The translations under genes were made by a program, and so were the position numbers. Under the pieces are notes generated by a model, which worked only from the letters and a program-made list of their open reading frames with translations, was not told the origin of the DNA and did no database searches. A DNA stretch of 64,000 nucleotides from the NCBI GenBank assembly GCA_020161755.1, contig JAIUOS010000003.1, forward strand, positions 1-64,000. The letters are read 5' to 3'. The stretch is from Actinomycetota bacterium. GTDB lineage: Bacteria > Actinomycetota > Actinomycetes > Propionibacteriales > Propionibacteriaceae. Shown piece after piece: positions 14,725 through 28,345 of the stretch. Position 1 is the first letter of the stretch; each line of letters opens with the position of its first letter.

Positions 14725-15555
14725 ATGACCACACTCACCCCTGGCGTGGCCGGCGCGCGAGTCCTTGCCCTCGGCATCGCCGGCAGCCGTTTCGACACCG
14801 CTGACCTGTCGGCGCTCCTGGACTTCGTCGAGGCCGCCCCGGCGGGCGTCGGCGCGCGCCCGACGGTCCTCATCCTGGCCACGGCCGCCGGGGAGGCCGA
14901 GCACCTCGTGCTCGCGCACCGGCTGCGCGGCCTCGCCGAGGGCTGCGACGTCGCCGTCGTGCCGCTGGACCTCGCGGCGACCGCCGTCGAACTCACCGCC
15001 CGGATGGTCGCGGGCAGCGCCGACCTGGTGGATCCCGACCTGCTCCCCGAGCTCGCGCTGGCGTTCGCCGGTGCGATCGACACCGCGGCCGTCCTCGGCG
15101 ATGTCTCGCGGCTCCGCGAACCGACGCCCACGCTCGCCCAGCACGCCCGTGGCCTGCTGCCGGGGGCGTGCTTCCTGGTGTCGCCGGCCGCTCCCGTGCT
15201 GTCGGGACGGGCGCTCGTCCAGCCGGCGTGGGAGGCGCTGGTGGCCGGTTCGGGCCCGCTGCGCATCGCTTCGGCCTCCCCGGGCGACCGGTTGGCCGCG
15301 TTCGTCGCGGCCCTGCCCGAAGGCACGGTCGTGGTCGACCCGCCGCCCGGCGCGCACGCCCAGCGCTGGGGTGCACGGAACTGGGTGGAGCTGTCGTGGC
15401 TCGGCGAGGACCCGGACGCCATCCGCCGGACCCTGTGCCAGCGGGAGACGTCCCGCTGCGACAACTGTGGACGCCGTGCCCTCACCGAGGTGTGCCCGTT
15501 CTGTTCCGCGGTTACCTATGGACTGCCCAGGCGACAGGAGGCCCAGACGTCATGA
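14725..15555 (+). CDS. Unrecognised Tad-operon protein with C-terminal zinc ribbon
   Basis: I do not recognise the first about 245 residues of this 276-residue protein. They are Ala/Leu/Val-rich alpha-beta sequence with no transmembrane helix and no Walker motif. The C-terminus has a clear four-cysteine zinc ribbon, CDNCGRRALTEVCPFCS. It is the first gene of the Tad locus and overlaps cpaB by 4 nt (ATGA), so it is probably co-expressed with the pilus genes. A structural, regulatory or scaffold role at the cytoplasmic face is possible, but only position suggests it. Confidence 0.75.
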   Translation: MTTLTPGVAGARVLALGIAGSRFDTADLSALLDFVEAAPAGVGARPTVLILATAAGEAEHLVLAHRLRGLAEGCDVAVVPLDLAATAVELTARMVAGSADLVDPDLLPELALAFAGAIDTAAVLGDVSRLREPTPTLAQHARGLLPGACFLVSPAAPVLSGRALVQPAWEALVAGSGPLRIASASPGDRLAAFVAALPEGTVVVDPPPGAHAQRWGARNWVELSWLGEDPDAIRRTLCQRETSRCDNCGRRALTEVCPFCSAVTYGLPRRQEAQTS

Positions 15556-16253
15556 ACCCACGGCAGCGACGGGGGGTGCTGCTCATGGTGATCGCGCTGA
15601 TCGGCGCGCTCGCCGTCTTCATCTCCGTGCTCACCTTCGTCTCGAGCGTGAACGCCAACGTCGGCGGCAAGGTGAACGTGGTGACCCTGACCCGGGACGT
15701 CAAGGCCTACCACCCGATCGAGCTCGACATGGTCCAGACCGTGCAGGTGCCCGAGAAGTGGGTCTCGCCGACCGATGCCCGCGACCCCTCCGAGGTGGTG
15801 GGGCTGGTGCCCGTGGCCGACCTGTCCTCGGGCAGCTACGTCGACCGCGCGATGGTGACCTCACGTCCGGGCATCGCCAACGGGTTCCGCGAGATCGCGA
15901 TCATGGTGGACGCCGAGACCGGCGTCGGCGGCAAGATCGGCTCCGGGGACCGGGTCGACATCATCGCCACCTTCGCCGGCCAGGACGAGAAGGCGCCGGT
16001 CGCCTCGTTCGTGGTCACCGATGCCCTGATCATCGACGTCGGCGTGGCCGAGGACGTCGAGAAGGCCAACTCCAGCGGCGGCTTCTCCGAGGGCAAGGCG
16101 CTGCCGGTCACGTTCGCGCTCACCGTGCGGGACGCCCTCCGGCTGGCGAGTGCGGAGAGTTTCGCCGTGAAGGTGCGGCTGGCGCTGCGGGCGAAGAACG
16201 ACTCGTCCGACATCCCCTCACCGGACCGCACCTATGAGGAGGGTTACCGCTGA
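15552..16253 (+). CDS. cpaB: Flp pilus assembly protein CpaB/RcpC-like, SAF domain
   Basis: The 233-residue protein has one N-terminal transmembrane helix (about residues 9-31), then an SAF-type domain (VKAYHPIELDMVQTVQVPEKWVS). A CpaB-typical segment, GIANGFREIAIMVDAETGVGGKIGSGDRVDIIATF, appears in two parts. In Tad systems this protein acts in the envelope, proposed to bind peptidoglycan or shape the secretion channel. It overlaps the upstream gene by 4 nt and the following gene by 1 nt (TGATG), so the genes are tightly coupled. Confidence 0.88.
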   Translation: MNPRQRRGVLLMVIALIGALAVFISVLTFVSSVNANVGGKVNVVTLTRDVKAYHPIELDMVQTVQVPEKWVSPTDARDPSEVVGLVPVADLSSGSYVDRAMVTSRPGIANGFREIAIMVDAETGVGGKIGSGDRVDIIATFAGQDEKAPVASFVVTDALIIDVGVAEDVEKANSSGGFSEGKALPVTFALTVRDALRLASAESFAVKVRLALRAKNDSSDIPSPDRTYEEGYR

Positions 16254-17809
16254 TGCCGACCATGGTCGCGCTGGTCACTGCCAGCCAGGAGCTGCGCAGC
16301 TCGTTCGGCACGGTGGTGGCGGAAGCGCCCGAGATCGAGCTGGTCGGTGTCGTCAGCTCCACCAACGAACTGAACTCGCTGGTGCAGGAGACCCCCGATC
16401 TCGACGTGGTCGTGGTGGACGCCGGCATGTTCGACCCGCCCGGCCTCGAGGTCGTCCGCGAACTCGGGCTGAACGCGCCGCTGGTCGCGGTGGTGGTCGT
16501 CGGCAATGCCACCACCACCCTGGCCGCCGTCGTCGCAGCGGGCGGACGCGCGATGCTGAACCGCCCGCTGTCGCTCCAGGAGGTGCAGTCCCAGCTGGAG
16601 ACCGCCGCCGCCTGGAGCCGGTCGCTGCGGCAGCACGTGAGCGGAAACGTGCACGGTGGACGCAACGAGCGCGGCGGCATCGTCGCGCTCGCCGGCGCGA
16701 AGGGCGGGGTGGGTACCTCCGTGCTCGCGACCGTGCTGGCCACGCAGGCCGCCGCCCTGGGCGAGACCGTCTGCCTGGTCGACCTCGACCTGCGGGCCGG
16801 TGACCTGGCCTTCCTCTGCGGTGTCTCGCCGCGCCGCAACATCTCCGACCTCGCCGGGCTGGTCGGCGACCTCACCATCCGCGGCATCCGCGAGGTGACG
16901 GTGGAGGTGCCGGCCGGCTTCACGCTCCTCGCCGCCCCCGATCGGGTCGAGCAGGCCGACGACGCCTCCGCCCCGGCGGTGCGCCAGATGCTGAACGAAC
17001 TGCGCCGCCACTTCTCGGTGATCGTCGTCGACGCGGGTTCGGCCCTGGACGACGCCCGGGCGGCCGCGCTCGAACTGGCCGACGAGGCGATCCTGGTCGC
17101 CGACTGCGAGTTGATCAGCATCCGCGCCGGACGCCGGACCCTGGACGCCTGGGACCGGTTGAGCGTCCGCGAGTCCGGTGGGGTGCGGTTGGTGGTGAAC
17201 CGCACCGACCGGCGCCGCGAGGTGCAGCCCGACCTGGTGGCGAAGCTGGTGAAGGTGCCGCTCACCCGTGCCTTCCCCGACGTGGTCGACGAGGTCGAGG
17301 AGCCGGTGAACTCCGGGCAACTGACCTCGGCGCGGATGCCGCAATTGGAGCGGGTGGCCAGGCAGCTCCTCGGCGACCTGGGCATCGGCACTCCGGTGAA
17401 CGGCGCCGCCCTGGAACCGGCCACCGCCGGCGTGCGGCACCGGCGCCCGTTCGGCCTGCGGGCGCGCACCGAGGCCGGTAGTGCCGCGGTCGAACTGCCG
17501 GTGTTCATCACGATCTTCCTGATCGCGTTCTTCGCCGCCGCCCAGGCACTGGCGGTCGGGTTGGGCTACATCGTCGCCGGCAATGCGGCGAACGAAGTGG
17601 CCCGGGCGGCGTCGGTCGGCGCCACCGACGCGCAGATCGCCGCCACCGCCGACCACGCGATGGGCGGGTTCAGGCTCGAGCCGCGTGCCCGCGTGAACCG
17701 AGCCGCCCACACCGTGACGGTCGAGGTCAGCGTCCCGCAGCTGTACGGCTGGCTGCCTGAGGGTCTCGACCACGCGTCCGCGTCCACGTCCTACATCCCG
17801 GAGGACTGA
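16253..17809 (+). CDS. Fusion of TadZ/CpaE-type ATPase with a TadE-type pseudopilin
   Basis: One continuous frame of 518 residues. Residues 1-130 form a receiver-like domain and 140-390 a MinD/ParA-type ATPase with the deviant Walker A AGAKGGVGTSVLA and VCLVDLDLRAGDL. This is TadZ, which positions Tad machinery at the pole. The C-terminus is a complete TadE prepilin: an intact cleavage site, TEAG-SAAVELPVF, at G409/S410, glutamate at mature position +5 (E414), a hydrophobic helix to about 435 and a TadE tail. These are normally two proteins. The prepilin peptidase TadV (26092-26763) cuts on the cytoplasmic side and could release both parts. An in-frame GTG at residue 394, without a clear ribosome-binding site, is an alternative way to make TadE alone. 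Confidence 0.9.
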   Translation: MPTMVALVTASQELRSSFGTVVAEAPEIELVGVVSSTNELNSLVQETPDLDVVVVDAGMFDPPGLEVVRELGLNAPLVAVVVVGNATTTLAAVVAAGGRAMLNRPLSLQEVQSQLETAAAWSRSLRQHVSGNVHGGRNERGGIVALAGAKGGVGTSVLATVLATQAAALGETVCLVDLDLRAGDLAFLCGVSPRRNISDLAGLVGDLTIRGIREVTVEVPAGFTLLAAPDRVEQADDASAPAVRQMLNELRRHFSVIVVDAGSALDDARAAALELADEAILVADCELISIRAGRRTLDAWDRLSVRESGGVRLVVNRTDRRREVQPDLVAKLVKVPLTRAFPDVVDEVEEPVNSGQLTSARMPQLERVARQLLGDLGIGTPVNGAALEPATAGVRHRRPFGLRARTEAGSAAVELPVFITIFLIAFFAAAQALAVGLGYIVAGNAANEVARAASVGATDAQIAATADHAMGGFRLEPRARVNRAAHTVTVEVSVPQLYGWLPEGLDHASASTSYIPED

Positions 17810-17810
17810 C

Positions 17811-18176
17811 ATGGGCCGCGACGAGAAGGGCTCGGTGCTGATCGAGGTGGTGGTGGCGGTGCCGCTGCTGGTGCTGTGCACGATGCTGATCGTCCAGGGT
17901 CTCGTGCTGACGTCCGGCCTCGGCTCGATCGAGGTCGCGGCGAAGGACGCGGCCCGCGCGGCCGCCGACAGCTGCTCGTCGGTCACGCCCGGCACCGCCG
18001 CGCGCCGGGCCGTTCCCGAGTTCGTCACCGTCCGCGAGGTCGACATCGAACGGCTCGGTGACACCTACCAGGCACGCGTGGTCGCCGGGCTGCGGTACGG
18101 GGTCGCGCACATGGCCAGCGGCGAGTTCGAAGTGAGCCGCACCGCACGGATGCCGAGGCTCGACTCATGCCGCTGA
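17811..18176 (+). CDS. tadE: TadE-like minor prepilin
   Basis: A 121-residue prepilin with a very short leader, MGRDEKG. The predicted cut gives SVLIEVVVAVPLLVL, with glutamate at +5 as in the Flp, TadE and fusion proteins of this locus. The hydrophobic helix covers about residues 8-30, and the remainder is a small extracytoplasmic domain with a cysteine pair (C55, C120 region). It starts one base after the fusion gene ends and overlaps tadA by 10 nt. Probably a minor pilin that initiates or caps the Flp pilus. Confidence 0.85.
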   Translation: MGRDEKGSVLIEVVVAVPLLVLCTMLIVQGLVLTSGLGSIEVAAKDAARAAADSCSSVTPGTAARRAVPEFVTVREVDIERLGDTYQARVVAGLRYGVAHMASGEFEVSRTARMPRLDSCR

Positions 18177-19483
18177 GGGATCGCGTCGTCCACTCCGAGG
18201 CGAGGGCGGACGCCGAGAAGGTCGACCTGGTCGGGGCCTACCTGACCCGGCTGATCGACGAGCTCGACCGGGAGGAGCTGCGCAACCTCAGCGACGCCCA
18301 GCGACGGGTGCGCCTCGAGCGGCGCCTCGGTGAGCTGATCAGCATCGAGGGCCCGGTGATGAGCGCCCGCGAGCGCGCCGACTTCATCAAGCGCGTGGTC
18401 GACGAGGCGCTCGGCCTCGGCGTCCTCGAACCGCTGCTCGCCGACCCGTCGGTGACCGAGATCATGGTCAACGGGCCCGCCACCGTCTACGTGGAACGGC
18501 GCGGCGTCGTCGAGCGCAGCCCGATCGCCTTCTCGTCCGAGGCGCAGCTGATGCAGACCATCGACCGCATCGTCTCCCGCGCCAATCGCCGGGTGGACGA
18601 GTCCAGCCCGATGGTGGACGTCCGGCTCGCCACCGGCGAGCGCGTGAACGTGATCATCCCGCCGCTGGCGGTGGACGGGGCGCTGGTGACGATCCGGCGC
18701 TTCCCGCGGTCGTTCCGGCTCTCCGAACTGGTCGAGCGGGAGACCCTCGACCAGCAGGCGATGCTGCTGCTGAGCGCGTGCGTGCGGGCGGAGTTCAACA
18801 TCGTGATCTCCGGCGGCACCGGCACCGGCAAGACCACCTTCCTCAACGCGCTGTCGGCGATGATCCCGCCCGAGGACCGCATCATCACGATCGAGGACGT
18901 CGCGGAGCTCTCGCTGCAGCAGCCGCACGTCGGACGCCTGGAGGCGCGCCCGGCGAACGTCGAGGGCAAGGGCCAGATCACGATCCGCGACCTGGTGCGC
19001 AACAGCCTGCGGATGCGTCCCGACCGGATCGTGGTGGGCGAGGTCAGGGGCGGGGAGACCCTCGACATGCTCCAGGCCATGAACACCGGCCACGCCGGCT
19101 CGATGGCGACCGTGCACGCGAACTCGGCCGAGGACGCGCTGGTGCGGCTGGAGACCCTGGCCTCGATGAGCGAGCTCGACCTGCCGGTCGAGGTGCTCCG
19201 CGACCAGATCAACGGTGCGATCGACGTGATCGTCCACCTGAGCCGGTTCCCCGACGGCAGCCGCAAGGTGGTGGAGATCAGCGTCCTGACCTCGAAGCGC
19301 CGCGAGAACTACACCGTCGCGCCGATCCTGGAGTTCGTGCACGAGCCGCTCGTCCGCGGCCAGTCGGTGACCGGCCGGTTCGTGGCGCACGAACTGCCCG
19401 CCGACCTGGTGGAACGACTGGTCTCCAGCGGCGAGAACGTGCCCGCGGCGTTCACCGAAGGAGGCCGGCGATGGATGCCATGA
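18167..19483 (+). CDS. tadA: Tad/Flp pilus assembly ATPase TadA (CpaF)
   Basis: Hexameric secretion ATPase that powers pilus assembly at the inner face of the membrane. The 438-residue protein has the N-terminal CpaF region (VDEALGLGVLEPLLADPSVTE), Walker A GGTGTGKTTFLN near residue 215, the Asp box ITIEDVAEL, and Walker B RIVVGEVRGGE. The HAGSMATVHANS histidine box follows. All are intact. It overlaps tadE upstream by 10 nt and tadB downstream by 13 nt. Confidence 0.96.
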   Translation: MPLRDRVVHSEARADAEKVDLVGAYLTRLIDELDREELRNLSDAQRRVRLERRLGELISIEGPVMSARERADFIKRVVDEALGLGVLEPLLADPSVTEIMVNGPATVYVERRGVVERSPIAFSSEAQLMQTIDRIVSRANRRVDESSPMVDVRLATGERVNVIIPPLAVDGALVTIRRFPRSFRLSELVERETLDQQAMLLLSACVRAEFNIVISGGTGTGKTTFLNALSAMIPPEDRIITIEDVAELSLQQPHVGRLEARPANVEGKGQITIRDLVRNSLRMRPDRIVVGEVRGGETLDMLQAMNTGHAGSMATVHANSAEDALVRLETLASMSELDLPVEVLRDQINGAIDVIVHLSRFPDGSRKVVEISVLTSKRRENYTVAPILEFVHEPLVRGQSVTGRFVAHELPADLVERLVSSGENVPAAFTEGGRRWMP

Positions 19484-20397
19484 CCATCATCGTGCTGACG
19501 TTGGTGGCGCTGGCGCTCGCGCTGATCGCCGGCGCGGCCCTGTACGACGCGGGCAGTCGCAAACAGGAGATCGTGCTGGCCTCCAGCGGCGACCAGAACA
19601 CCGGGGTGTTCACCCGCTGGCGGCGGCTCGCCAACACCTCCCTGCGTTCCACCCGGTGGGGGCTGCGGCTCGACCAGCGGCTGGCCGGCGCCAGCCTGGA
19701 CCTCGGGCCCGCCGACTACGTGATGGTGGTCGGCGGAGTCGCGCTCCTGGTCGGCCTGACCGGACGCCCCCTGCTGGGCTATCTCGGCGCCGGCGTGATC
19801 ATGTTCGGCATCGCCTTCCTCGCCGACCGGTGGCTGTCGCGGCAGCAGCGGCGGCGTGCCGAACGGTTCATCCTCCAGCTGCCCGAGCTCGCCCGGGTGC
19901 TCGGCAACGCCGCCAGCGCGGGCCTCGCGCTGCGCAGCGGCATCGACCTGGTGGCGCGGGAGATGGACGCGCCCGCATCGGAGGAGTTCGCCGAGGTCGG
20001 GCGCCGGCTCAGCCTCGGTACGCCGCTGGAGGACGCCCTGCGCGACCTCTCCCGTCGGCTGCCGTCCCCGGAGCTGGCGGTGCTGGTGAAGACGATCGTG
20101 GTGCAGAGCCGGGCCGGTGGTGCGCTGGTGACCGCTCTGACGAGCATCGCCAACACCCTGGACGACCGCCGCGAGCTGAACCGGGAACTGAAGACCACCG
20201 TGACCGGCGCGGTGTTCATCGGGTGGCTGGTGGTCGCGATCGCGATCGGCTCGGTGCTGGTGATGAACGTGATCTCGCCGGGGGCGCTGGACGCACTGGT
20301 GCAGACCCTCCCCGGCCAGATCGTGCTGGTCGTCGCGGGGTCGCTCTTCGTGGTCGGCCACCTCCTGATCGGCCGGATCACCAGGATCGAGGTGTGA
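19471..20397 (+). CDS. tadB: Tad pilus inner-membrane platform protein TadB
   Basis: A 308-residue type II secretion F-domain protein. It has an N-terminal helix, a helix pair at about 85-118, the cytoplasmic F domain (LQLPELARVLGNAASAGLAL and VQSRAGGALVTALTSIANTL) and two C-terminal helices. GAAGGAGG ends 6 nt before ATG 19471, which favours this start over the ATG at 19480. Together with TadC it forms the platform on which TadA acts. Confidence 0.92.
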   Translation: MDAMTIIVLTLVALALALIAGAALYDAGSRKQEIVLASSGDQNTGVFTRWRRLANTSLRSTRWGLRLDQRLAGASLDLGPADYVMVVGGVALLVGLTGRPLLGYLGAGVIMFGIAFLADRWLSRQQRRRAERFILQLPELARVLGNAASAGLALRSGIDLVAREMDAPASEEFAEVGRRLSLGTPLEDALRDLSRRLPSPELAVLVKTIVVQSRAGGALVTALTSIANTLDDRRELNRELKTTVTGAVFIGWLVVAIAIGSVLVMNVISPGALDALVQTLPGQIVLVVAGSLFVVGHLLIGRITRIEV

Positions 20398-20398
20398 G

Positions 20399-21289
20399 GT
20401 GCCGTTGATCCTCGCCCTCGCCACCACCGCGGTCTTCGCGCTGTGGGTGGCCGGCTGGCGGCTGAGCCGTTCCACCGGGCTGGAGGACGTGGAGGAGCAG
20501 CTGGTGCCGCCGGTGGCGGGCGAGGCGCGCGGGCCCGGCCCGGTGGTGCGGATCAGCGAGTTCCTCGGCATCCGGTTCCAGCGCTACCTGTTCTCGCTGT
20601 ACGGCCCGTACCGGATCCAGCAGCTCGACCTGCTGCTCGACCGGGCCGGCCGCCCGGAGGGAATGAGCGCCCGCGACTTCATCCGCCGCCAGGCCGGCAT
20701 GATCGCGATCGGCGTGTTCACCGGTGGCCTGCTCCTGATCGCCGGGATGTGGATCTTCGCCGTGCTGGTCGTGGCCGCGTTCTCGGCGATGCTGCCGCTG
20801 TGGTTGCGCGGCCTGGCGCGGCGCCGGCAGGCGTCCATCTCCCGCGACCTGCCCGACTTCCTCGACGTCCTCGCGGTCACGGTCTCGGCCGGGTTGTCGT
20901 TGCAGAGCGCGATGGAACGGGTCGCCGAGGCCGACGACCGGCCGCTGAGCACCGAGATCCGGCGCGTCCTGGAGGATCTACGGCTGGGGGTCAGCCGGCG
21001 CGAGGCGCTCACCGCGCTGCGCGACCGCAACGACAGTCCCTCGGTCGGGTCGTGGGTGACCGCGATGCTGCACGCCGAGGAGCTCGGCTCGCCCCTGTCC
21101 GGCGCCCTGAACGAGATCGCCGCGGACATTCGCCGGGAGGCCGCGCAGCTGGCCCGCCGGCAGGCCGCCAAGACCTCTCCGAAGGTGAGCCTCGTGGTCA
21201 GCATGGTGATCCTGCCCGGGGCGATGCTGTTGATCCTGGCCTCGATCGTGCTCACGAACTCCGACCTGCTGGGGTCGTTGACGAAATGA
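20399..21289 (+). CDS. tadC: Tad pilus inner-membrane platform protein TadC
   Basis: Second type II secretion F-domain protein, 296 residues. DLPDFLDVLAVTVSAGLSLQSAMERVAE and the helical hairpin near HAEELGSPLSGALNEIA are typical. Hydrophobic helices lie near the N-terminus, at about 95-140 and at the C-terminus. GTG start one base after tadB, so translation is coupled. Ends in an ATGA overlap with the histidine kinase gene. Confidence 0.92.
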   Translation: MPLILALATTAVFALWVAGWRLSRSTGLEDVEEQLVPPVAGEARGPGPVVRISEFLGIRFQRYLFSLYGPYRIQQLDLLLDRAGRPEGMSARDFIRRQAGMIAIGVFTGGLLLIAGMWIFAVLVVAAFSAMLPLWLRGLARRRQASISRDLPDFLDVLAVTVSAGLSLQSAMERVAEADDRPLSTEIRRVLEDLRLGVSRREALTALRDRNDSPSVGSWVTAMLHAEELGSPLSGALNEIAADIRREAAQLARRQAAKTSPKVSLVVSMVILPGAMLLILASIVLTNSDLLGSLTK

Positions 21290-22476
21290 AACCCGACCAG
21301 ATCCACGAACTGGCCATGGCGGTCAAGGTGCTGTGCGACGTCCGCCTGGCCTGCAGCGCCCTGATGGTGGTCGCGGTGCCGGCGATGGGCCTGGGCCCGG
21401 AGGTGCTGGCGGTCATCGGCGCGAGCCTGGCCATGTCGTACGTGTTGCTGCGCCACTGGGACCCGCTGGGGGCCCGCCTCGTGCAGGGCTGGGTGTTCCC
21501 GTCGCTGGAGTCGCTGGTGGCCATGCTGCTGTTCGTCGAGTTCGGCAACAGTGGTCTGGGCGGGGCCTATCTCGGCGCCACCCTGGCGCTGCTGGCGTGC
21601 GCGGGCGGGGTCCGGGCGATGCTGCTGTCGTTCGGCGCCTTCATCCCGATCGTGGTGCTGGCGGTGTGGGGGGTGTTCCCCACCCTCGGCGGGGCCAGCG
21701 TCCGGGAGTGGATCTGGCTGCTCAGCCTGGTGATCCTCCAGGTCGCCTGCGGGCTGGGCGGGTTCTACCTCCGCACGATGCTGTTCTCCCGGGTCGACCT
21801 CGTCGAGCAGCGGCGGGCCGTCGAGCTCGTGGAGGCGTCCAGCCGGGAACGGCTGCGGCTCGCGCACGAGTTGCACGACGGCGTCAGCAAGTCACTGCAC
21901 GGCTGCCACATGATCGCGGAGTCGCTGAGCCGCCAGCTGGCGCGGGAGGACCACCCGCAGACGCCGAAGGCGCGCGAGCTCACCCACTCCCTCGACGTCG
22001 CCCGGCAGGAGTCGCGCGACCTGCTGTACGAGCTCCGGCAGGTGCCGGCCGACGACCTGGTCCCGCCGCTGCGTTCGGTCCTGGGACGGTGGGCCGAGCA
22101 CAACCCCGGGGTCGAGGTGCACGACGAGCTGGGCACCGCGCCGGTCGTGGTGACCGTCCGGGTGCGGCACGAGGTGGCGCGGGCGGTGGGGGAACTGCTG
22201 GAGAACGTCCGGCGGCACAGCGGCAGCACCGACGTGCGGGTCACGCTGGCCCCGGTGGCTGACGGACACGCGCTGCTGACGGTCGCCGACACCGGCGTCG
22301 GCATGGCCGTGGCCGACCCCGAACGGCTCAAGCGGGAGGGGCACTTCGGGCTGGCCGGGGTGCAGGAGCGGGCCGAACTCGTCGGCGGCTCCTGCCGCAC
22401 GGTGTCGGGCCCGGGCGGCACCCGGGTGCAGATCGGGTTCCCGGTCGTGGACGACGAGGAGAGGGGCGCGGCATGA
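21286..22476 (+). CDS. Sensor histidine kinase of the NarL/DesK type embedded in the Tad operon
   Basis: The 396-residue protein has an N-terminal membrane domain of about five or six helices (residues 15-170) with no obvious extracytoplasmic sensor domain. A coiled linker follows, then a HisKA_3 domain with phospho-acceptor histidine in LAHELHDGVSKSLHG (about residues 190-205). A C-terminal HATPase domain carries ELLENVRRHSGS and ADTGVGM. It pairs with the response regulator that follows with an ATGA overlap. Its place between tadC and flp suggests it senses envelope or assembly status and controls pilus genes; that is inference from position. Confidence 0.9.
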   Translation: MKPDQIHELAMAVKVLCDVRLACSALMVVAVPAMGLGPEVLAVIGASLAMSYVLLRHWDPLGARLVQGWVFPSLESLVAMLLFVEFGNSGLGGAYLGATLALLACAGGVRAMLLSFGAFIPIVVLAVWGVFPTLGGASVREWIWLLSLVILQVACGLGGFYLRTMLFSRVDLVEQRRAVELVEASSRERLRLAHELHDGVSKSLHGCHMIAESLSRQLAREDHPQTPKARELTHSLDVARQESRDLLYELRQVPADDLVPPLRSVLGRWAEHNPGVEVHDELGTAPVVVTVRVRHEVARAVGELLENVRRHSGSTDVRVTLAPVADGHALLTVADTGVGMAVADPERLKREGHFGLAGVQERAELVGGSCRTVSGPGGTRVQIGFPVVDDEERGAA

Positions 22477-23102
22477 GGGTCCTGGTGGTGGACGACAACC
22501 CGATCGTCCGGGTCGGCCTGCGGACGATGCTCACCGATCTGCCACAGGTGCGGGAGGTCGTCGAGGCGGTGAACGGGCGACAGGCCCTGGAGCGCCTCGC
22601 CGGGCCGGACCGGTTCGACGTGGTGTTCCTCGACGTGCGGATGCCCGTGTTGGACGGTCTCGGAGCCCTCGAGGGCATCACCGACACCCCGGTCGTGATG
22701 TTGACCAGTTCCGACGAGCCCGACACCGTGCGCAGGGCGCTCGCACTGGGCGCGCGCGGCTATCTGGTGCACGGCGAGTTCGGCGAGGCGGAACTGGTCG
22801 CGGCGCTGGCCACCTGCAGCCAGGGTGGCATGGTGCTCAGCCCGCCCGCCGTCGAGGCGATGTTCGCGCCGGCGCCGTCCACCGACCCCGTGGATGACAC
22901 CGTCGAGAAGGCCGAGCGGCTGGGCCTGACCGCCCGTGAGGCCGAGCTGGTGTCCGCGCTGGCGGACGGCCTGAGCAACGCCCAGATCGCCAAGCGGCTG
23001 TACCTGTCGGAGAAGACGGTGAAGAACCACCTCAACCGCATCTACGCCAAGATGGCCGTCACCAGCCGGGCCGAGGCCATCGTGGCCTGGCTGAGCCACT
23101 GA
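22473..23102 (+). CDS. NarL/LuxR-family response regulator embedded in the Tad operon
   Basis: A 209-residue regulator. The receiver domain has acidic pocket VVDDNP and phospho-acceptor aspartate in VVFLDVRMP. The LuxR-type helix-turn-helix has LTAREAELVSALADGLSNAQIAKRLYLSEKTVKNHLNRIYAKM. It overlaps the kinase gene by 4 nt. The pilin gene starts 132 nt downstream with its own probable promoter, a likely target. GGGACCT-type sequences upstream of flp (23106) and of the gene at 26846 (26772) are candidate binding sites. Confidence 0.92.
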   Translation: MRVLVVDDNPIVRVGLRTMLTDLPQVREVVEAVNGRQALERLAGPDRFDVVFLDVRMPVLDGLGALEGITDTPVVMLTSSDEPDTVRRALALGARGYLVHGEFGEAELVAALATCSQGGMVLSPPAVEAMFAPAPSTDPVDDTVEKAERLGLTAREAELVSALADGLSNAQIAKRLYLSEKTVKNHLNRIYAKMAVTSRAEAIVAWLSH

Positions 23103-23233: not shown

Positions 23234-23455
23234 ATGAACAAGGCACTGGAACTGTACGTGAAGGCCACCACCGGCCTGGAGCACCTGCGTCGCTCGGAGC
23301 GCGGCCAGGGCACGATCGAGTACGTCGGGATCCTGTTCATCGTCGCGGCGATCTGCGCCGCCGTGCTGACCTTCGTGAAGGGCGCGGACGGTACCCCGAT
23401 CGGCCAGGCAGTGATCGACGCCGTGGTGAAGGCGATCACGGACCTGGTCGGCTGA
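23234..23455 (+). CDS. flp: Flp-type major pilin
   Basis: A 73-residue Flp prepilin. The leader ends at RSERG, giving mature QGTIEYVGILFIVAAICAAVL with glutamate at +5 followed by tyrosine, the Flp signature. The rest is a short amphipathic tail, so the pilus is built almost entirely of the helix. A good AGGAG site precedes the ATG. A strong hairpin follows at 23469-23502 and probably sets pilin expression above that of downstream genes. This is the smallest and presumably most abundant product of the locus. Confidence 0.93.
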   Translation: MNKALELYVKATTGLEHLRRSERGQGTIEYVGILFIVAAICAAVLTFVKGADGTPIGQAVIDAVVKAITDLVG

Positions 23456-23541: not shown

Positions 23542-25053
23542 ATGACCAAGGTGATCCCGGTCCTGGCGGCGCTGCTGCTCGCGCTCGTCGGGTGCACGCC
23601 GACCCAGCCGACCACGCCGAGCCCGACCGCGCCGGCGACGACGGCCGGCACGTCCGCCACACCGACGGCGACCCCGGTGGCACCCGGACAGCGCTACGAG
23701 CTCCCCGCCGACACCGACGTCGCGCAGTGGGGTGAGCCGCTCGCGAGCCTGACCGGCAAGAAGCTCTCCGACCCTCGGCTGATCACCAGCCGCCAGGGCT
23801 GGCGGGTCGACCTGATGGGTGTGTACCGGCTGGCTCCCGACCGGGTGCTGGCCGAGTTCCGGTTGAACGCCGACAACGCCGTCCGTCCCGACCTGAAGGT
23901 CTGGAACGACCCCGACTACGACTGGTGGTTCCACCCGAACGACCCGAAGAACGCCGGCTACACCGGCACCGTCTGGGAGTTCTCCGACGTCCAGCTGAAA
24001 GTGGACGGCGACGACACCAGCTACCGGGCGGTGCGCACCGCGTCCCACTACTGCCTGTGCACGATGAGCACCGAGAACGTGAAGGGCTTCGGCGACTACC
24101 CGGCCTACGTCGTGCTGACCACCCCCACCGACGCGTCGACGGTGAACCTGTCGCTGCGCGACGTCGGCACGTTCTCCGACGTCGCGGTGAGCGCCGGCAT
24201 GCCGGAGCGTTCGGTGGTGCCGCTGGGCTTCGGCTACCAGTTGCGTCTCGGAGCGGTGACCCGGCCGGTGGCGGGGACGGTCCGCGTCCGGTTCTCCCTC
24301 GAACTGCCGGCGGCCGGGATCGCGGGCACGACGTTCCGTCCGCGCTACATGTACCAGGTGGGCGGGGCGGCGCCCTGGAAGGAGCTCGTCGACTCCTCCA
24401 GCAGCTACCAGAACCTGATCGCGCTGGATCCCGGCGGGGTCGACGGCGGCTGGCCGAAGACGAGCAGCCAGGGCAAGTGCGAGAGCTGCACGGTCACGCA
24501 GGGGTACCTGTCGAAGCCGGGCACGGCGATGGACCTCGAGATCGACCTGCCCGACCCGGGCAGTGCGACGGTGATGGTCGCACCGACCGTCGGCTGGCCG
24601 TTCTCCGCGGTGCCCAGCGACGGCACGGCGAGTGCGAACAGCGGCCTGGTGCACTACCGCCCGCAGTCGAGGACGACCGGTGCCGACATCTCCGACGGCG
24701 ACTTCAACCTCGACACGGCCGTGCTGTTCAAGGTCGACAAGGCGACGCTGACCGCCCGGGCCAGCGCCACCCTCGACAAGGTGGCCAAGGCGCTGCAGGG
24801 CCAGTCGGGACGGGCGGTGGTGATCGTCGGCCACACCGACAGCACCGGCAGCAACGCGCACAACCTGGACCTGTCGCGGCGCCGTGCGGCCGCGGTGGAG
24901 GCCGCGCTGGAGAAGCGCCTGGGCGCTGGCTGGACGTTCACGACCGACGGAAAGGGCGAGGGTGACCCGCGGGTGCGCGAGAGCGGCCTGTCCGGGGCCC
25001 AGCTGGAACGGGCCCGCGCGCTGAACCGGCGGGTGGAGGTGAGCGTGAAATGA
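23542..25053 (+). CDS. Lipoprotein with C-terminal OmpA-like peptidoglycan-binding domain
   Basis: A 503-residue lipoprotein. The signal peptide ends in lipobox ALVGC with the lipidated cysteine at about residue 18; a Thr/Pro/Ala-rich linker follows to about residue 50. The middle, about 55-380, is unrecognised, with cysteine pairs HYCLC and CESC that could form disulfides. The C-terminus is an OmpA domain (NLDTAVLFKVDKATL; VIVGHTDSTGSNAHNLDLSRRRA). OmpA domains bind peptidoglycan. The gene lies between flp and tadG, and its stop overlaps tadG (ATGA). Likely role: anchoring the pilus or its channel to the cell wall (inference). GAGGAGG precedes the ATG. Confidence 0.85.
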   Translation: MTKVIPVLAALLLALVGCTPTQPTTPSPTAPATTAGTSATPTATPVAPGQRYELPADTDVAQWGEPLASLTGKKLSDPRLITSRQGWRVDLMGVYRLAPDRVLAEFRLNADNAVRPDLKVWNDPDYDWWFHPNDPKNAGYTGTVWEFSDVQLKVDGDDTSYRAVRTASHYCLCTMSTENVKGFGDYPAYVVLTTPTDASTVNLSLRDVGTFSDVAVSAGMPERSVVPLGFGYQLRLGAVTRPVAGTVRVRFSLELPAAGIAGTTFRPRYMYQVGGAAPWKELVDSSSSYQNLIALDPGGVDGGWPKTSSQGKCESCTVTQGYLSKPGTAMDLEIDLPDPGSATVMVAPTVGWPFSAVPSDGTASANSGLVHYRPQSRTTGADISDGDFNLDTAVLFKVDKATLTARASATLDKVAKALQGQSGRAVVIVGHTDSTGSNAHNLDLSRRRAAAVEAALEKRLGAGWTFTTDGKGEGDPRVRESGLSGAQLERARALNRRVEVSVK

Positions 25054-25733
25054 CCCCGGCCGGCCGGGGCCGCCGACGCGACCAGCGCGGACAGGCCTCG
25101 ATGGTGCTCGTCCTCGCCGTCCCGGCGTTGCTCGTGATCGCGCTGATCCTGGTCAGCGTCCTCGGTGACGCGGTGATGAAGCGGACCGAGACGAGCACCG
25201 CGGCGGACGCGGCCGCCCTGGCCGCGGCGGAGGAGTGGCGCAGCTACGTCGCCGACGAGCTGGGCGCGGCCGACGACCTGCTGCCCGCCGAGGCGCTCGA
25301 CCGGCTGAGGGTGCTGCTCACCACCGATGCCGCCCTGCTCGACCGGGGTCGCGTGGCGAGCCGCGCGCGCGAACTCGCCGCGGGCAACGACGCCACCGTG
25401 ACCAGCCTCACCGTGCGGCGGACCGTGCGTGGGCTGGAGTTCGCGGTGAGCACCCGCAACGTCGACGTGGTCAACGAGAGTTCGGCCAGGGCGGAGGCGC
25501 AGGCGACCGCCGCCGTCGAGCTCACCGCCGGCGCGTGCTGGCGGGGCGCGGTGCTCGGGCTGGTCTACGAGGGCCGCTGCCTGGACTGGGAGGGCCTCTC
25601 GGACGAGCTGGTCCCCGCACCCCCCAGGGAGCCGGCTCCCGAGCCGGACCCCGACGAGCCGACCCCCTCGCCGACGCCCACCCCCAGGGTGGCACTGACC
25701 CCGTTCCGGGCGGACACCCGGCTGGTCGCGTGA
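25050..25733 (+). CDS. tadG: TadG-like pilus assembly protein
   Basis: A 227-residue protein with a short basic N-terminus and then RGQASMVLVLAVPALLVIALILVSVLG, a TadG/TadE-like (PF13400) membrane helix. It lacks the +5 glutamate seen in the pilins of this locus. ADAAALAAAEEW is the usual TadG continuation. One cysteine pair (ACWRG, GRCLDW) lies near residues 165-180, and the tail is Pro/Asp/Glu-rich. It overlaps both neighbours by 4 nt. Probably a minor envelope component of the Flp apparatus. Confidence 0.82.
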   Translation: MTPAGRGRRRDQRGQASMVLVLAVPALLVIALILVSVLGDAVMKRTETSTAADAAALAAAEEWRSYVADELGAADDLLPAEALDRLRVLLTTDAALLDRGRVASRARELAAGNDATVTSLTVRRTVRGLEFAVSTRNVDVVNESSARAEAQATAAVELTAGACWRGAVLGLVYEGRCLDWEGLSDELVPAPPREPAPEPDPDEPTPSPTPTPRVALTPFRADTRLVA

Positions 25734-26095
25734 GCCGGCCCATCGCCGGACCCGGGCCGGGCGTGCTCCTCCACAACGGCTCCCCGGTGGCCCCGCTGCT
25801 GGTGGCCGACACGGCTGCGGCCCGTGCCCGCGGGCTGCTGGGCACCGACGGGATCGACGGCGCGCTCTGGCTGGAGCCGTGCCCCAGCGTGCACATGATG
25901 GGCATGCGCTACCCGATCGACGCCGCCACGCTCGCTGCGGACGGCACCGTCCTCGACGTCCGGACGCTGCGTCCCTGGGTCGGGATGACGCCGGTCCGGC
26001 GTGGCGCGAAGGTCACCGTCGAGGCATCGGCGGGCTTCCTCGCCTCCCACGGGATCGGTGTCGGCGACCGGCTGGCGATCGGCGAGGCGGAGTGA
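25730..26095 (+). CDS. DUF192 family protein within the Tad operon
   Basis: A 121-residue DUF192 protein. ARARGLLGTDGIDGALWLEPCPSVHMMGMRYPIDAATLA and the later VLDVRTLRPWVGM are family hallmarks. Many DUF192 proteins are secreted, but I see no signal peptide here. The family's biochemical function is unsettled; a copy is common in actinobacterial Tad loci, so a link to pilus assembly is plausible. GTG start in a GTGA overlap with tadG; its own stop overlaps tadV the same way. Confidence 0.82.
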   Translation: MSRPIAGPGPGVLLHNGSPVAPLLVADTAAARARGLLGTDGIDGALWLEPCPSVHMMGMRYPIDAATLAADGTVLDVRTLRPWVGMTPVRRGAKVTVEASAGFLASHGIGVGDRLAIGEAE

Positions 26096-26763
26096 CCCCA
26101 CAGGTGTTCGTCGGCCTCGTGCTGGCGGTGTCGGTCGCGGTCGGCCTGTGCGTCACCGCGTGGCTGCGGCGGGGCCGGCACCGGCGGCCCGACGAGCAGG
26201 ACCTGCCGCGGCGGTCCTTCCTCTGGGTCGCGTTGCTCACGCCGGTGGCGGCGACCGTGGCCGCGATCGGGCTGGTGAGCCGCTGGCCGATCGGGGTGGC
26301 TGCCGGACCTGTGCTGTTCGTCCTGGGCTGGGTGCTCGCGGCCGGTGTGGACGCCGACGTGGGCCGCCTGCCGAACCGGCTCACCGTGCCGCTGGCGGGA
26401 ACGGCCCTCGTCTGGGGGGTGGCGCTGGCGGCCGTCCGCGGTGACGTCGGGGCCGGGGTGCGGACGGTCCTGGGGGCGGTCGCGCTCGGTGGCGCCTACC
26501 TGGCGTTGATGGCGTTGTCCGGACTGGTCACCGGCCACGGCGGCGGCCTGGGTGCCGGCGACGCGAAGCTGGCGCTCAGCATCGGTGCCGTCCTGGGCTG
26601 GTTCAGCTGGGGGAGCATCCTGGGCGGGTTCCTGCTCGCCTTCGTCCTGGGCGCGGCCCAGGCACTGGTCCTGGTGGTGGCCCGGCGCGCCCGCCGGAGC
26701 GACGCGTTCAGCTTCGGCCCGGCCATGGCGTTCGGCGCTGCCCTCGCCCTCGTCGTGGCGTGA
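26092..26763 (+). CDS. tadV: Type IV prepilin peptidase (TadV/CpaA-like)
   Basis: A 223-residue A24-family aspartic protease with about six membrane helices. The two catalytic aspartates are in VDADVGRLPNRLTVP (about residue 84) and GLGAGDAKLALSIGA (the GxGD motif, about residue 153). It removes the leader of Flp, TadE and, by prediction, the TadE half of the fusion protein. It lacks the N-terminal methylase domain of PilD-type enzymes, as usual for TadV. GTG start in a 4-nt overlap with the DUF192 gene. Confidence 0.9.
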   Translation: MTPQVFVGLVLAVSVAVGLCVTAWLRRGRHRRPDEQDLPRRSFLWVALLTPVAATVAAIGLVSRWPIGVAAGPVLFVLGWVLAAGVDADVGRLPNRLTVPLAGTALVWGVALAAVRGDVGAGVRTVLGAVALGGAYLALMALSGLVTGHGGGLGAGDAKLALSIGAVLGWFSWGSILGGFLLAFVLGAAQALVLVVARRARRSDAFSFGPAMAFGAALALVVA

Positions 26764-26845: not shown

Positions 26846-28345
26846 ATGATCGTTGAGGTTGACCACACCCCCGCCACGAGGACGCGTTCGCAACGCGGCG
26901 TGGCCACGGTCGAGTTCGCGGGGATCATCTTCGTCGTGATGGTGATCATGTCCGGCGTGGTCAGCCGCATGGACGCCACCCCCTATCCCTCCGCGTTCTG
27001 GTGGGGCGTCTGCAAGGCCTACAGCACCGCTCCCGGCGTCACCGGCATCCAGTGCGGCACCCCACCCTCGGGTGATCCGGCCAACCCCGACAACCCGGCC
27101 GCCGAGGACCGGGCCGACGACCTGAACATCGCCTGCGTCGCCAGCCAGACCAACCGCACCGACGGCATCAACGTGGTCGTCTACGGCATCCGGGTCGGCG
27201 AGGGCGGCACCGACGAGATCAGGATCAACGCCGACGGCACCGCGACCGTCACCCTCAGCCAGACCACCGAGGCGGGCGTCGAGGCGGCCATCGCCAACGG
27301 CTCCCTCAAGGGCAGCGTGTACGCGGTCGGGAACGGCGAACTGAAGTACACCTACAACTTCCCCGACGCCGCGTCGGCCAAGAAGTTCCTCGACGAGCGC
27401 CGCAACGTCCTCAACCGGGTCACCGACACGGTGATCCCCGGCGCCCAGACCCTCAACGAGCTCTCCACCCGCCTGGGCAACTGGATGGGCGAGAACATTG
27501 GCGACAAGATGCCGTGGGTCAGCGACGCAGACCGGGCCGCGAACGACCAGGAGCGCGCCAACAACACCGCGGACGCGATCAGCATCGCCGTCGGCGCGAA
27601 GGCCAACGCCTCCGGCAAGGTCGGCACGGGCGACATCAAGGGCCAGGCCGAGATCGAGCTGAGCGCCAAGGGCGAGGCGCTGGTCAACTTCGACTCCAGC
27701 AAGGGGTCCTCGTTCACCGGCACCGTCGAGGGCAAGCTGAGCGCCGGCGTGAGCGCGAAGTTCGGCGATCCGAAGAACGGTGTCGGCGCACTGTTCGGGG
27801 TGAGCGCCCAAGGCGGCGCGAAGGGCGGCTACAAGGTGGTCTTCGACTCCGACGGCAACCCCACCCAGCTGGTCCTGACGCGGGAGCTGACCGGCCAGGC
27901 CGTCGGTGACGCGACCCTCCAGGCCGGCACCGCGAAGCTGCCCGGCGCGAAGGGCGGTGTCGGCGGGATCTGGGCGACGACCTGGACCCTCGACCTCTCC
28001 GATCCGGCGAACCGTGCTGCCTTCGACGCCACGTTCACCGTCGGCTCGGTCAGCGCCGGCGACTACACCGGTGCGGTTGCGCTGCCGAACCTGTCCATGA
28101 CGCCGGAACAGATCTCGAAGTGGCTCACCCTGGCCGACCGGATCGACGCCGACAGCTACGAGGCGAACTACAAGTATGTCCTCGCCAGCGGCTCCGTCAG
28201 TCCCAGCGACAAGGACTACGAGCTCAAGGAGGGGGTGTTCGGGGCCGGCCTGACCATCACCGAGACCAGCCGTATGCTGAACAGCGCCACGGGACGCGAC
28301 CACCGCACCGGCGGGCCCGAGGTGCCGCTGGCCACCTGCGAGTGA
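26846..28345 (+). CDS. Large prepilin-like protein of unknown type
   Basis: The 499-residue protein has a TadE/Flp-type N-terminus. A basic leader ends TRSQRG, then VATVEFAGIIFVVMVIMSGVV, with glutamate at mature +5 exactly as in the pilins of this locus. The remaining about 450 residues are extracytoplasmic by prediction and unlike TadE or TadG. A Cys-containing, Pro/Asp-rich segment comes first. Regions rich in alternating Gly/Ala/Lys/Thr (GKVGTGDIKGQAEIELSAKG, FTGTVEGKLSAGVSAKFG) follow and look like beta-strand repeats. I do not recognise the domain. A tip or adhesin-like pseudopilin carried by the Flp machinery is my inference. ATG 26846 is chosen because it gives a proper leader; its ribosome-binding site (AGGA) is weak. 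Confidence 0.8.
   Translation: MIVEVDHTPATRTRSQRGVATVEFAGIIFVVMVIMSGVVSRMDATPYPSAFWWGVCKAYSTAPGVTGIQCGTPPSGDPANPDNPAAEDRADDLNIACVASQTNRTDGINVVVYGIRVGEGGTDEIRINADGTATVTLSQTTEAGVEAAIANGSLKGSVYAVGNGELKYTYNFPDAASAKKFLDERRNVLNRVTDTVIPGAQTLNELSTRLGNWMGENIGDKMPWVSDADRAANDQERANNTADAISIAVGAKANASGKVGTGDIKGQAEIELSAKGEALVNFDSSKGSSFTGTVEGKLSAGVSAKFGDPKNGVGALFGVSAQGGAKGGYKVVFDSDGNPTQLVLTRELTGQAVGDATLQAGTAKLPGAKGGVGGIWATTWTLDLSDPANRAAFDATFTVGSVSAGDYTGAVALPNLSMTPEQISKWLTLADRIDADSYEANYKYVLASGSVSPSDKDYELKEGVFGAGLTITETSRMLNSATGRDHRTGGPEVPLATCE

What the first reader, a model, noticed from the sequence alone, without database searches (positions are those of the whole stretch)
16253..17809. TadZ ATPase fused in frame to a TadE pseudopilin, with an intact prepilin cleavage site at the junction
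Seen: a single open frame with a MinD/ParA-type ATPase (AGAKGGVGTSVLA) and, from residue 403, a full TadE prepilin start TEAG-SAAVELPVF with Gly at -1 and Glu at +5, the same rule as Flp, TadE and the 499-residue protein in this locus. Known: TadV-type peptidases cut prepilin leaders on the cytoplasmic side. Inference: the 409-residue ATPase is in effect an enormous leader peptide. TadV would cut it into soluble TadZ and mature TadE, fixing a 1:1 ratio and tying ATPase release to pilin processing. If uncut, the ATPase would be membrane-tethered. I do not know of a described case.
Basis: partly seen in the sequence, partly recalled or inferred. Interest (0 to 1): 0.82.

Follow-up and report, generated by a model that had tools for sequence, protein, structure and literature searches.

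The report
Pilus ATPase fused to its pilin
Many actinobacteria, including this one, make a pilus-positioning protein (TadZ) and a minor pilus subunit (TadE) as one chain with a perfectly preserved protease cutting site at the join, so one protease probably releases both parts; this arrangement is widespread, but I found no published description of it.

Summary
Confirmed. ORF 16253-17809 (518 aa) is one frame: TadZ (receiver-like domain plus atypical MinD/ParA-type ATPase, residues 1-382), a disordered linker, then a TadE-type prepilin with site TEAG|SAAVE (G409|S410, Glu414 at +5).

It is neither an error nor a one-off. I found 65 TadZ-TadE fusions across Actinomycetota: this genus, other Propionibacteriaceae, Nocardioidaceae, Cellulomonas, Promicromonosporaceae, Thermobifida, Streptomyces, Mobiluncus and Solirubrobacter. 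Another 32 loci encode the same proteins as two adjacent, mostly abutting genes. In all 65 fusions residue -1 is Gly and +5 is Glu (Asp once); -3 is Asp/Glu in 62. Split and second TadE genes show the same signature. Internal initiation is not general: 24 of 65 fusions have no ATG/GTG/TTG 4-35 codons upstream of the site, and the window's GTG 17432 has no Shine-Dalgarno.

Best explanation: a two-product precursor cut by the locus's A24 peptidase (TadV, 26092-26763) into soluble TadZ and mature TadE. Fused and split forms interchange at least five times on the tree, which fits equivalent final products. Cleavage is inferred, not shown. The predicted ~409-residue "leader" far exceeds the 6-51 residues given in a review. 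No description was found in the open-access papers searched.

The parts
15540..16253 (+). RcpC/CpaB (SAF domain), upstream gene; its stop overlaps the TadZ-TadE start by 1 nt (start approximate)
   Evidence: Pfam RcpC 2.4e-18, SAF 1.6e-7; TGATG junction
16253..17809 (+). TadZ-TadE fusion gene, 518 aa
   Evidence: 65 fused homologues including this one
16253..16612 (+). receiver-like N-terminal domain of TadZ (residues 1-120)
   Evidence: sub-threshold Pfam Response_reg; PDB profile hits 4dad/4dn6 pilus-assembly CpaE receiver domains; AlphaFold pLDDT ~95
16676..17287 (+). MinD/ParA-like ATPase domain with variant deviant Walker A KGGVGTS (residues 142-345)
   Evidence: Pfam AAA_31 6.8e-10; Foldseek 3ea0 and E. 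rectale TadZ 3fkq
17399..17479 (+). disordered, positively charged linker up to Gly409 (residues 383-409)
   Evidence: pLDDT <50 at 383-411; RHRRPFGLRARTEAG
17477..17482 (+). predicted prepilin-peptidase cleavage site G409|S410
   Evidence: Gly -1 in 65/65 fusions; six-frame scan
17480..17806 (+). mature TadE minor pilin (residues 410-518): 44-residue helix, short helix, three strands
   Evidence: AlphaFold pLDDT 94.5; 24 of 49 homologous domains hit Pfam TadE
17811..18176 (+). second TadE-like prepilin (DEKG|SVLIE), own Shine-Dalgarno GGAGG
   Evidence: NCBIfam TadE_Rv3655c 23.7 bits, sub-cutoff
18167..19483 (+). TadA motor ATPase
   Evidence: Pfam T2SSE 4e-64
19470..20397 (+). TadB-like platform protein (start approximate)
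   Evidence: position between TadA and TadC; no Pfam hit, inference
20399..21289 (+). TadC platform protein
   Evidence: Pfam T2SSF 6.8e-25
23234..23455 (+). Flp major pilin (SERG|QGTIEY)
25050..25733 (+). TadG-like protein
   Evidence: Pfam Tad 2.6e-7
26092..26763 (+). TadV-type A24 prepilin peptidase with both Asp motifs (DADVGRLPN, GAGD)
   Evidence: Pfam Peptidase_A24 2.4e-8; genome hit 38.7 bits, over cut-off

Best explanation
16253-17809 encodes a two-product precursor of a Tad (type IVc) pilus. Residues 1-382 are TadZ, a receiver-like domain plus a ParA/MinD-type ATP-binding domain. Residues 410-518 are a TadE minor pilin whose prepilin site is kept at the join. The chain inserts N-in/C-out through the TadE helix. 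The A24 peptidase TadV, encoded in the same locus, then cuts after Gly409 on the cytoplasmic face, releasing TadZ and a mature TadE starting at Ser410. The effect is obligatory co-production of the two proteins at the assembly site, with TadZ held at the membrane until processing. Shown: fusion, conservation, site signature, peptidase gene, two separate predicted folds. Inferred: insertion, cleavage, release and stoichiometry.
For: 65 fused homologues in a broad set of Actinomycetota. Gly at -1 in 65/65, Glu at +5 in 64/65 (Asp once), Asp/Glu at -3 in 62/65, while -4 to -8 vary freely; the signature is the same in 32 split and 96 second TadE genes. Both site residues are among only 15 invariant columns of 30 divergent fusions, alongside P-loop and Walker B residues. 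AlphaFold gives two confident modules joined by a disordered linker holding the site. The N-part matches E. rectale TadZ 3fkq over both domains. Orthologous C-parts pass the Pfam TadE cut-off, and 24 of 49 hit the family. An A24 peptidase lies 8.3 kb downstream. Fused and split states change at least five times on the TadZ tree, which fits equivalent final products. Mean net charge of -30..-1 is +3.6, as the positive-inside rule asks.
Against: No direct evidence of cleavage. The window's own C-part falls below the Pfam TadE threshold, so its identity rests on orthologues, site and gene order. The genome has six A24 peptidases, so the enzyme is inferred from position. 11 of 65 fusions have net charge <=0 in the 30 residues before the site. 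The TadE model has no significant PDB match. Known leaders are 6-51 residues (PMC6916266), so whether the peptidase accepts a folded 409-residue leader is untested.
Confidence: 0.78

Rival explanations
1. The fusion is not cut: TadE's helix serves as a permanent membrane anchor for TadZ, a fixed hub at the pilus base.
For: A membrane-bound TadZ would answer the open question of what holds the monoderm type IVc assembly complex together (PMC6916266); TadE/F were required but not found in purified M. luteus pili (PMC4322843).
Against: Nothing would then keep Gly -1 invariant in 65/65 divergent fusions. The +5 Glu of pilins acts with a free mature N-terminus (general knowledge). Split versions in the same clade make TadZ without an anchor.
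Confidence: 0.13
2. TadE is mainly made separately from an internal start such as GTG 17432, and the long frame is incidental.
For: GTG 17432 would give an ordinary leader VRHRRPFGLRARTEAG; 11 of 65 fusions have a start with a Shine-Dalgarno-like motif upstream of the site.
Against: No Shine-Dalgarno at 17432; 24 of 65 fusions have no ATG/GTG/TTG 4-35 codons upstream, against 1 of 32 split genes; 22 of 32 split and 70 of 96 second TadE genes have start plus SD.
Confidence: 0.05
3. The protein is cut, but the fusion is a near-neutral alternative to translational coupling: it arises and breaks by loss or gain of a stop codon between abutting genes and adds no regulation. (This concerns what the fusion is for, and is compatible with the cleavage step of the best explanation.)
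For: Split genes start -4 to +3 nt from the TadZ stop in most cases; at least five state changes, several within Streptomyces; 7 fused and 7 split among 14 carriers in an even class sample.
Against: Outside Streptomyces nearly all members found are fused, also in other classes, which suggests the fused state is at least maintained.
Confidence: 0.45
4. Sequencing or assembly error joined two genes.
For: None found.
Against: 65 fusions in separate genomes including single-contig assemblies; GC3 0.91 through the linker.
Confidence: 0.01

Closest known systems
TadZ/CpaE (E. rectale TadZ, PDB 3fkq; Ssd/Rv3660c family TIGR03815)
   Same: Receiver-like domain plus ParA/MinD ATPase; Foldseek aligns 3fkq over 396 columns; sits in a tad locus with tadA/C, flp and tadV.
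   Different: C-terminal fusion to a pilin. All 65 fusions have KGGVG[TAVC][ST] or KGGLGTT, lacking the P-loop Lys of KGGVGK[TS]. TIGR03815 score 75 is below its cut-off of 154.
TadE/TadF minor pilins (PF07811), processed by TadV in Aggregatibacter (Tomich 2006, cited)
   Same: G|xxxxE site, one hydrophobic helix, ~110-residue mature part; a second TadE-like gene follows.
   Different: The pre-region is a ~409-residue folded protein instead of a 6-51 residue leader (range); the window member scores below the Pfam cut-off.
Modular pilins such as S. sanguinis PilB/PilC
   Same: Prepilin carrying a large extra domain.
   Different: There the extra domain is C-terminal and stays on the pilin; here it is N-terminal, cytoplasmic and predicted to be cut off.
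PilM-PilN fusions (PulL, C. difficile)
   Same: Fusion of neighbouring type IV filament assembly genes.
   Different: No pilin and no protease site between the parts.

Membership tests
TadZ/CpaE | Receiver-like domain plus ParA/MinD-type ATPase with variant deviant Walker A | tested here: met
   Pfam, PDB profiles, Foldseek 3fkq, KGGVGTS
TadZ/CpaE | Encoded in a tad locus | tested here: met
   RcpC, TadA, TadC, TadG, Flp, A24 peptidase within 15-27 kb
TadZ/CpaE | Polar localisation and recruitment of other Tad proteins | not testable with these tools
   needs microscopy
TadE minor pilin | Class III signal: Gly -1, Glu +5, hydrophobic helix | tested here: met
TadE minor pilin | Pfam TadE (PF07811) above cut-off | tested here: inconclusive
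   Window member not hit; orthologues pass with 23.2, 34.9 and 24.8 against 22.9; 24 of 49 family members hit at E<=0.01
TadE minor pilin | Processed by TadV and required for piliation | not testable with these tools
   needs tadV deletion and immunoblot
Prepilins with known leader lengths | Leader of 6-51 residues (PMC6916266) | tested here: not met
   pre-region is 409 residues, unless an internal start is used
A24 prepilin peptidase (TadV) | Peptidase_A24 domain with both catalytic Asp motifs | tested here: met
   PF01478 34.8 bits, cut-off 26.5; D in VDADVGRLPN and GAGD seen in the sequence

The most novel reading that the evidence does not exclude
A bacterial precursor polyprotein in which the prepilin peptidase, not a ribosomal stop, separates a cytoplasmic ATPase hub from its minor pilin. 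TadZ would stay membrane-tethered beside the peptidase and platform until TadE is processed, so pilus-base assembly would be timed and metered by pilin maturation. It would be the longest prepilin pre-region known to me and spread across a phylum.
Probability: 0.45. Interest if true: 0.78.

Novelty: new variant of a known kind. Interest (0 to 1): 0.64.

Why it matters
It implies that A24 prepilin peptidases accept a pre-region of hundreds of folded residues and can act as polyprotein-splitting enzymes. It gives a covalent link between TadZ, whose place in the machine is uncertain, and a named minor pilin, which bears on the open question of what holds monoderm type IVc assembly complexes together. 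It may also partly explain why many actinobacterial Tad systems were scored as lacking minor pilins (PMC6668835): fused TadE can fall below Pfam thresholds. Natural fused/split pairs in Streptomyces make the question directly testable.

Tried and rejected
Assembly error: rejected by homologues and GC3. Internal GTG start: rejected as a general mechanism by comparing start codons and Shine-Dalgarno in fused and split genes. Chance motif: rejected by the six-frame scan. Viral contigs and PLSDB plasmids gave no relatives. PDB fold search of the TadE part gave nothing significant, so its fold cannot be tied to a solved pilin. Six literature searches found no TadZ-TadE fusion; subscription journals are mostly not held, and the E. 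rectale TadZ paper was not available. Larger class and phylum surveys failed for technical reasons and were replaced by smaller samples.

Full report
Observation. ORF 16253-17809 is a single 518-codon frame. It starts at ATG 16253 behind a strong Shine-Dalgarno, with a 1-nt overlap with the RcpC/CpaB gene. Pfam finds AAA_31 at 143-291 and a sub-threshold receiver domain at 13-114. The C-terminus reads RHRRPFGLRARTEAG|SAAVELPVFITIFLIAFF. The predicted cut is G409|S410, and Glu414 is at +5. Third-position GC stays at 0.91-0.95 through the linker, so the join is coding. A six-frame scan of the whole window for G|xxxxE plus a hydrophobic stretch gives four hits, all Tad-locus prepilins.

Surroundings. 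The locus reads RcpC/CpaB, TadZ-TadE, a second TadE-like prepilin, TadA, a TadB-like protein, TadC, a sensor kinase and response regulator, Flp, an OmpA-like lipoprotein, TadG, and an A24 peptidase with both Asp motifs. A 499-residue prepilin-like protein follows. Flp, TadE2 and the fusion all carry Glu at -3, Gly at -1 and Glu at +5. The own genome also holds a separate, more distant TadZ-like match on another contig and six A24 peptidase genes in all.

Homologues. In the same genus, G012 and G011 have the same fusion with GEGG|QSAVE and SDSG|QSAVE. In another family of the order, G038 has SEAG|QIALE. A profile of these four found relatives in named genomes: Cellulomonas, Myceligenerans, Promicromonospora, Isoptericola, Thermobifida fusca and other Nocardiopsidaceae, Aeromicrobium, Nocardioides, many Streptomyces, Mobiluncus and Solirubrobacter. 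An order-wide search added more. Profiles for the two halves classified the loci as 65 fused (the window included), 32 with TadE as a separate adjacent gene, and 96 second TadE genes. In even samples, 14 of 118 genomes of the class and 7 of 149 of the phylum carry this TadZ clade. Of the 14, seven are fused and seven split, and three further phylum genomes outside the class are fused.

Site conservation. In fusions -1 is Gly in 65/65, +5 Glu in 64/65 (Asp once), -3 Asp or Glu in 62/65, and +1 is Gln, Ala or Ser; positions -4 to -8 vary. Split and second TadE genes show the same pattern at -3, -1 and +5. In 30 divergent fusions only 15 columns are invariant, among them P-loop and Walker B residues, and Gly-1 and Glu+5. 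One caution: the TadE profile was seeded with sequences found through a G/A/S-xxxx-E pattern. However, every locus with a strong TadZ hit that is not cut off by a contig end yielded a TadE hit, so few exceptions can have been missed.

Internal initiation. 24 of 65 fusions have no ATG/GTG/TTG 4-35 codons upstream of the site, against 1 of 32 split genes. Start plus Shine-Dalgarno-like motif is present in 11 of 65 fused, 22 of 32 split and 70 of 96 second genes. The window's GTG 17432 has no such motif. Split genes mostly start -4 to +3 nt from the TadZ stop, so the two-gene form looks translationally coupled.

History. On a tree of the TadZ part, fused and split states need at least five changes, with mixed branches in Streptomyces and fusions almost everywhere else. 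The root is not inferred and the search began from fused queries, so fusion-first is suggested, not shown. If the two forms replace each other, the simplest view is that both end as the same two proteins; this is an inference.

Structure. AlphaFold on 30 fusions gives mean pLDDT 90 but pTM 0.58: confident TadZ (1-382) and TadE (408-518) modules separated by a disordered stretch 383-411 that contains the site. Foldseek ranks a ParA ATPase first and E. rectale TadZ (3fkq, identified as TadZ from general knowledge of that entry) second, the latter over both domains. The TadE part alone gives pLDDT 94.5, a long helix plus a small sheet, with no significant PDB match. Half of 49 homologous C-domains hit Pfam TadE, so family identity is good although the window member alone is below cut-off. 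All 65 fused TadZ proteins lack the second P-loop lysine. A review describes TadZ as having an atypical Walker A that binds ATP with low ATPase activity (PMC6668835).

Mechanism. Prepilins insert with the leader in the cytoplasm, and the peptidase cuts on the cytoplasmic face after Gly or Ala (PMC10191384). A pre-region with an average charge of +3.6 before the helix fits this orientation. I conclude that the most likely fate is a cut after Gly409 by the locus's TadV, giving TadZ and mature TadE. What the fusion gains is open: obligatory co-production and temporary tethering of TadZ, or a near-neutral equivalent of coupling.

Novelty. A review gives prepilin leaders of 6-51 residues (PMC6916266). 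No paper in the searched open-access library describes a TadZ-TadE fusion. Both parts are known families, so this is a new variant of a known kind; the interest lies in the conserved internal processing site, its phylum-wide spread and its ready testability.

Noticed in passing
26846-28345: A 499-residue protein with a prepilin start (TRTRSQRG|VATVEFAGIIFVV), just after tadV: a large modular pilin candidate, possibly a tip adhesin.
   Followed up: partly
23542-25053: Lipoprotein-like protein with a C-terminal OmpA-type peptidoglycan-binding domain between flp and tadG; could be a monoderm pilus anchor.
   Followed up: no
21273-23102: Sensor histidine kinase and LuxR-type response regulator inside the tad operon, between tadC and flp; probable pilus regulation.
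   Followed up: no
25050-25733: TadG-like protein has a cleavage-like DQRG|QASMV start but no Glu at +5, unlike the prepilins of the locus.
   Followed up: no
own genome, contig C20 ~63620-68664: A second Tad-like locus with a more distant TadZ-like ATPase and its own A24 peptidase about 4 kb away; the genome has six A24 peptidase genes.
   Followed up: partly
L034:4001-5551 (Cellulomonas avistercoris): The only fusion with Asp instead of Glu at +5 (GDAG|QAAVDLP).
   Followed up: no
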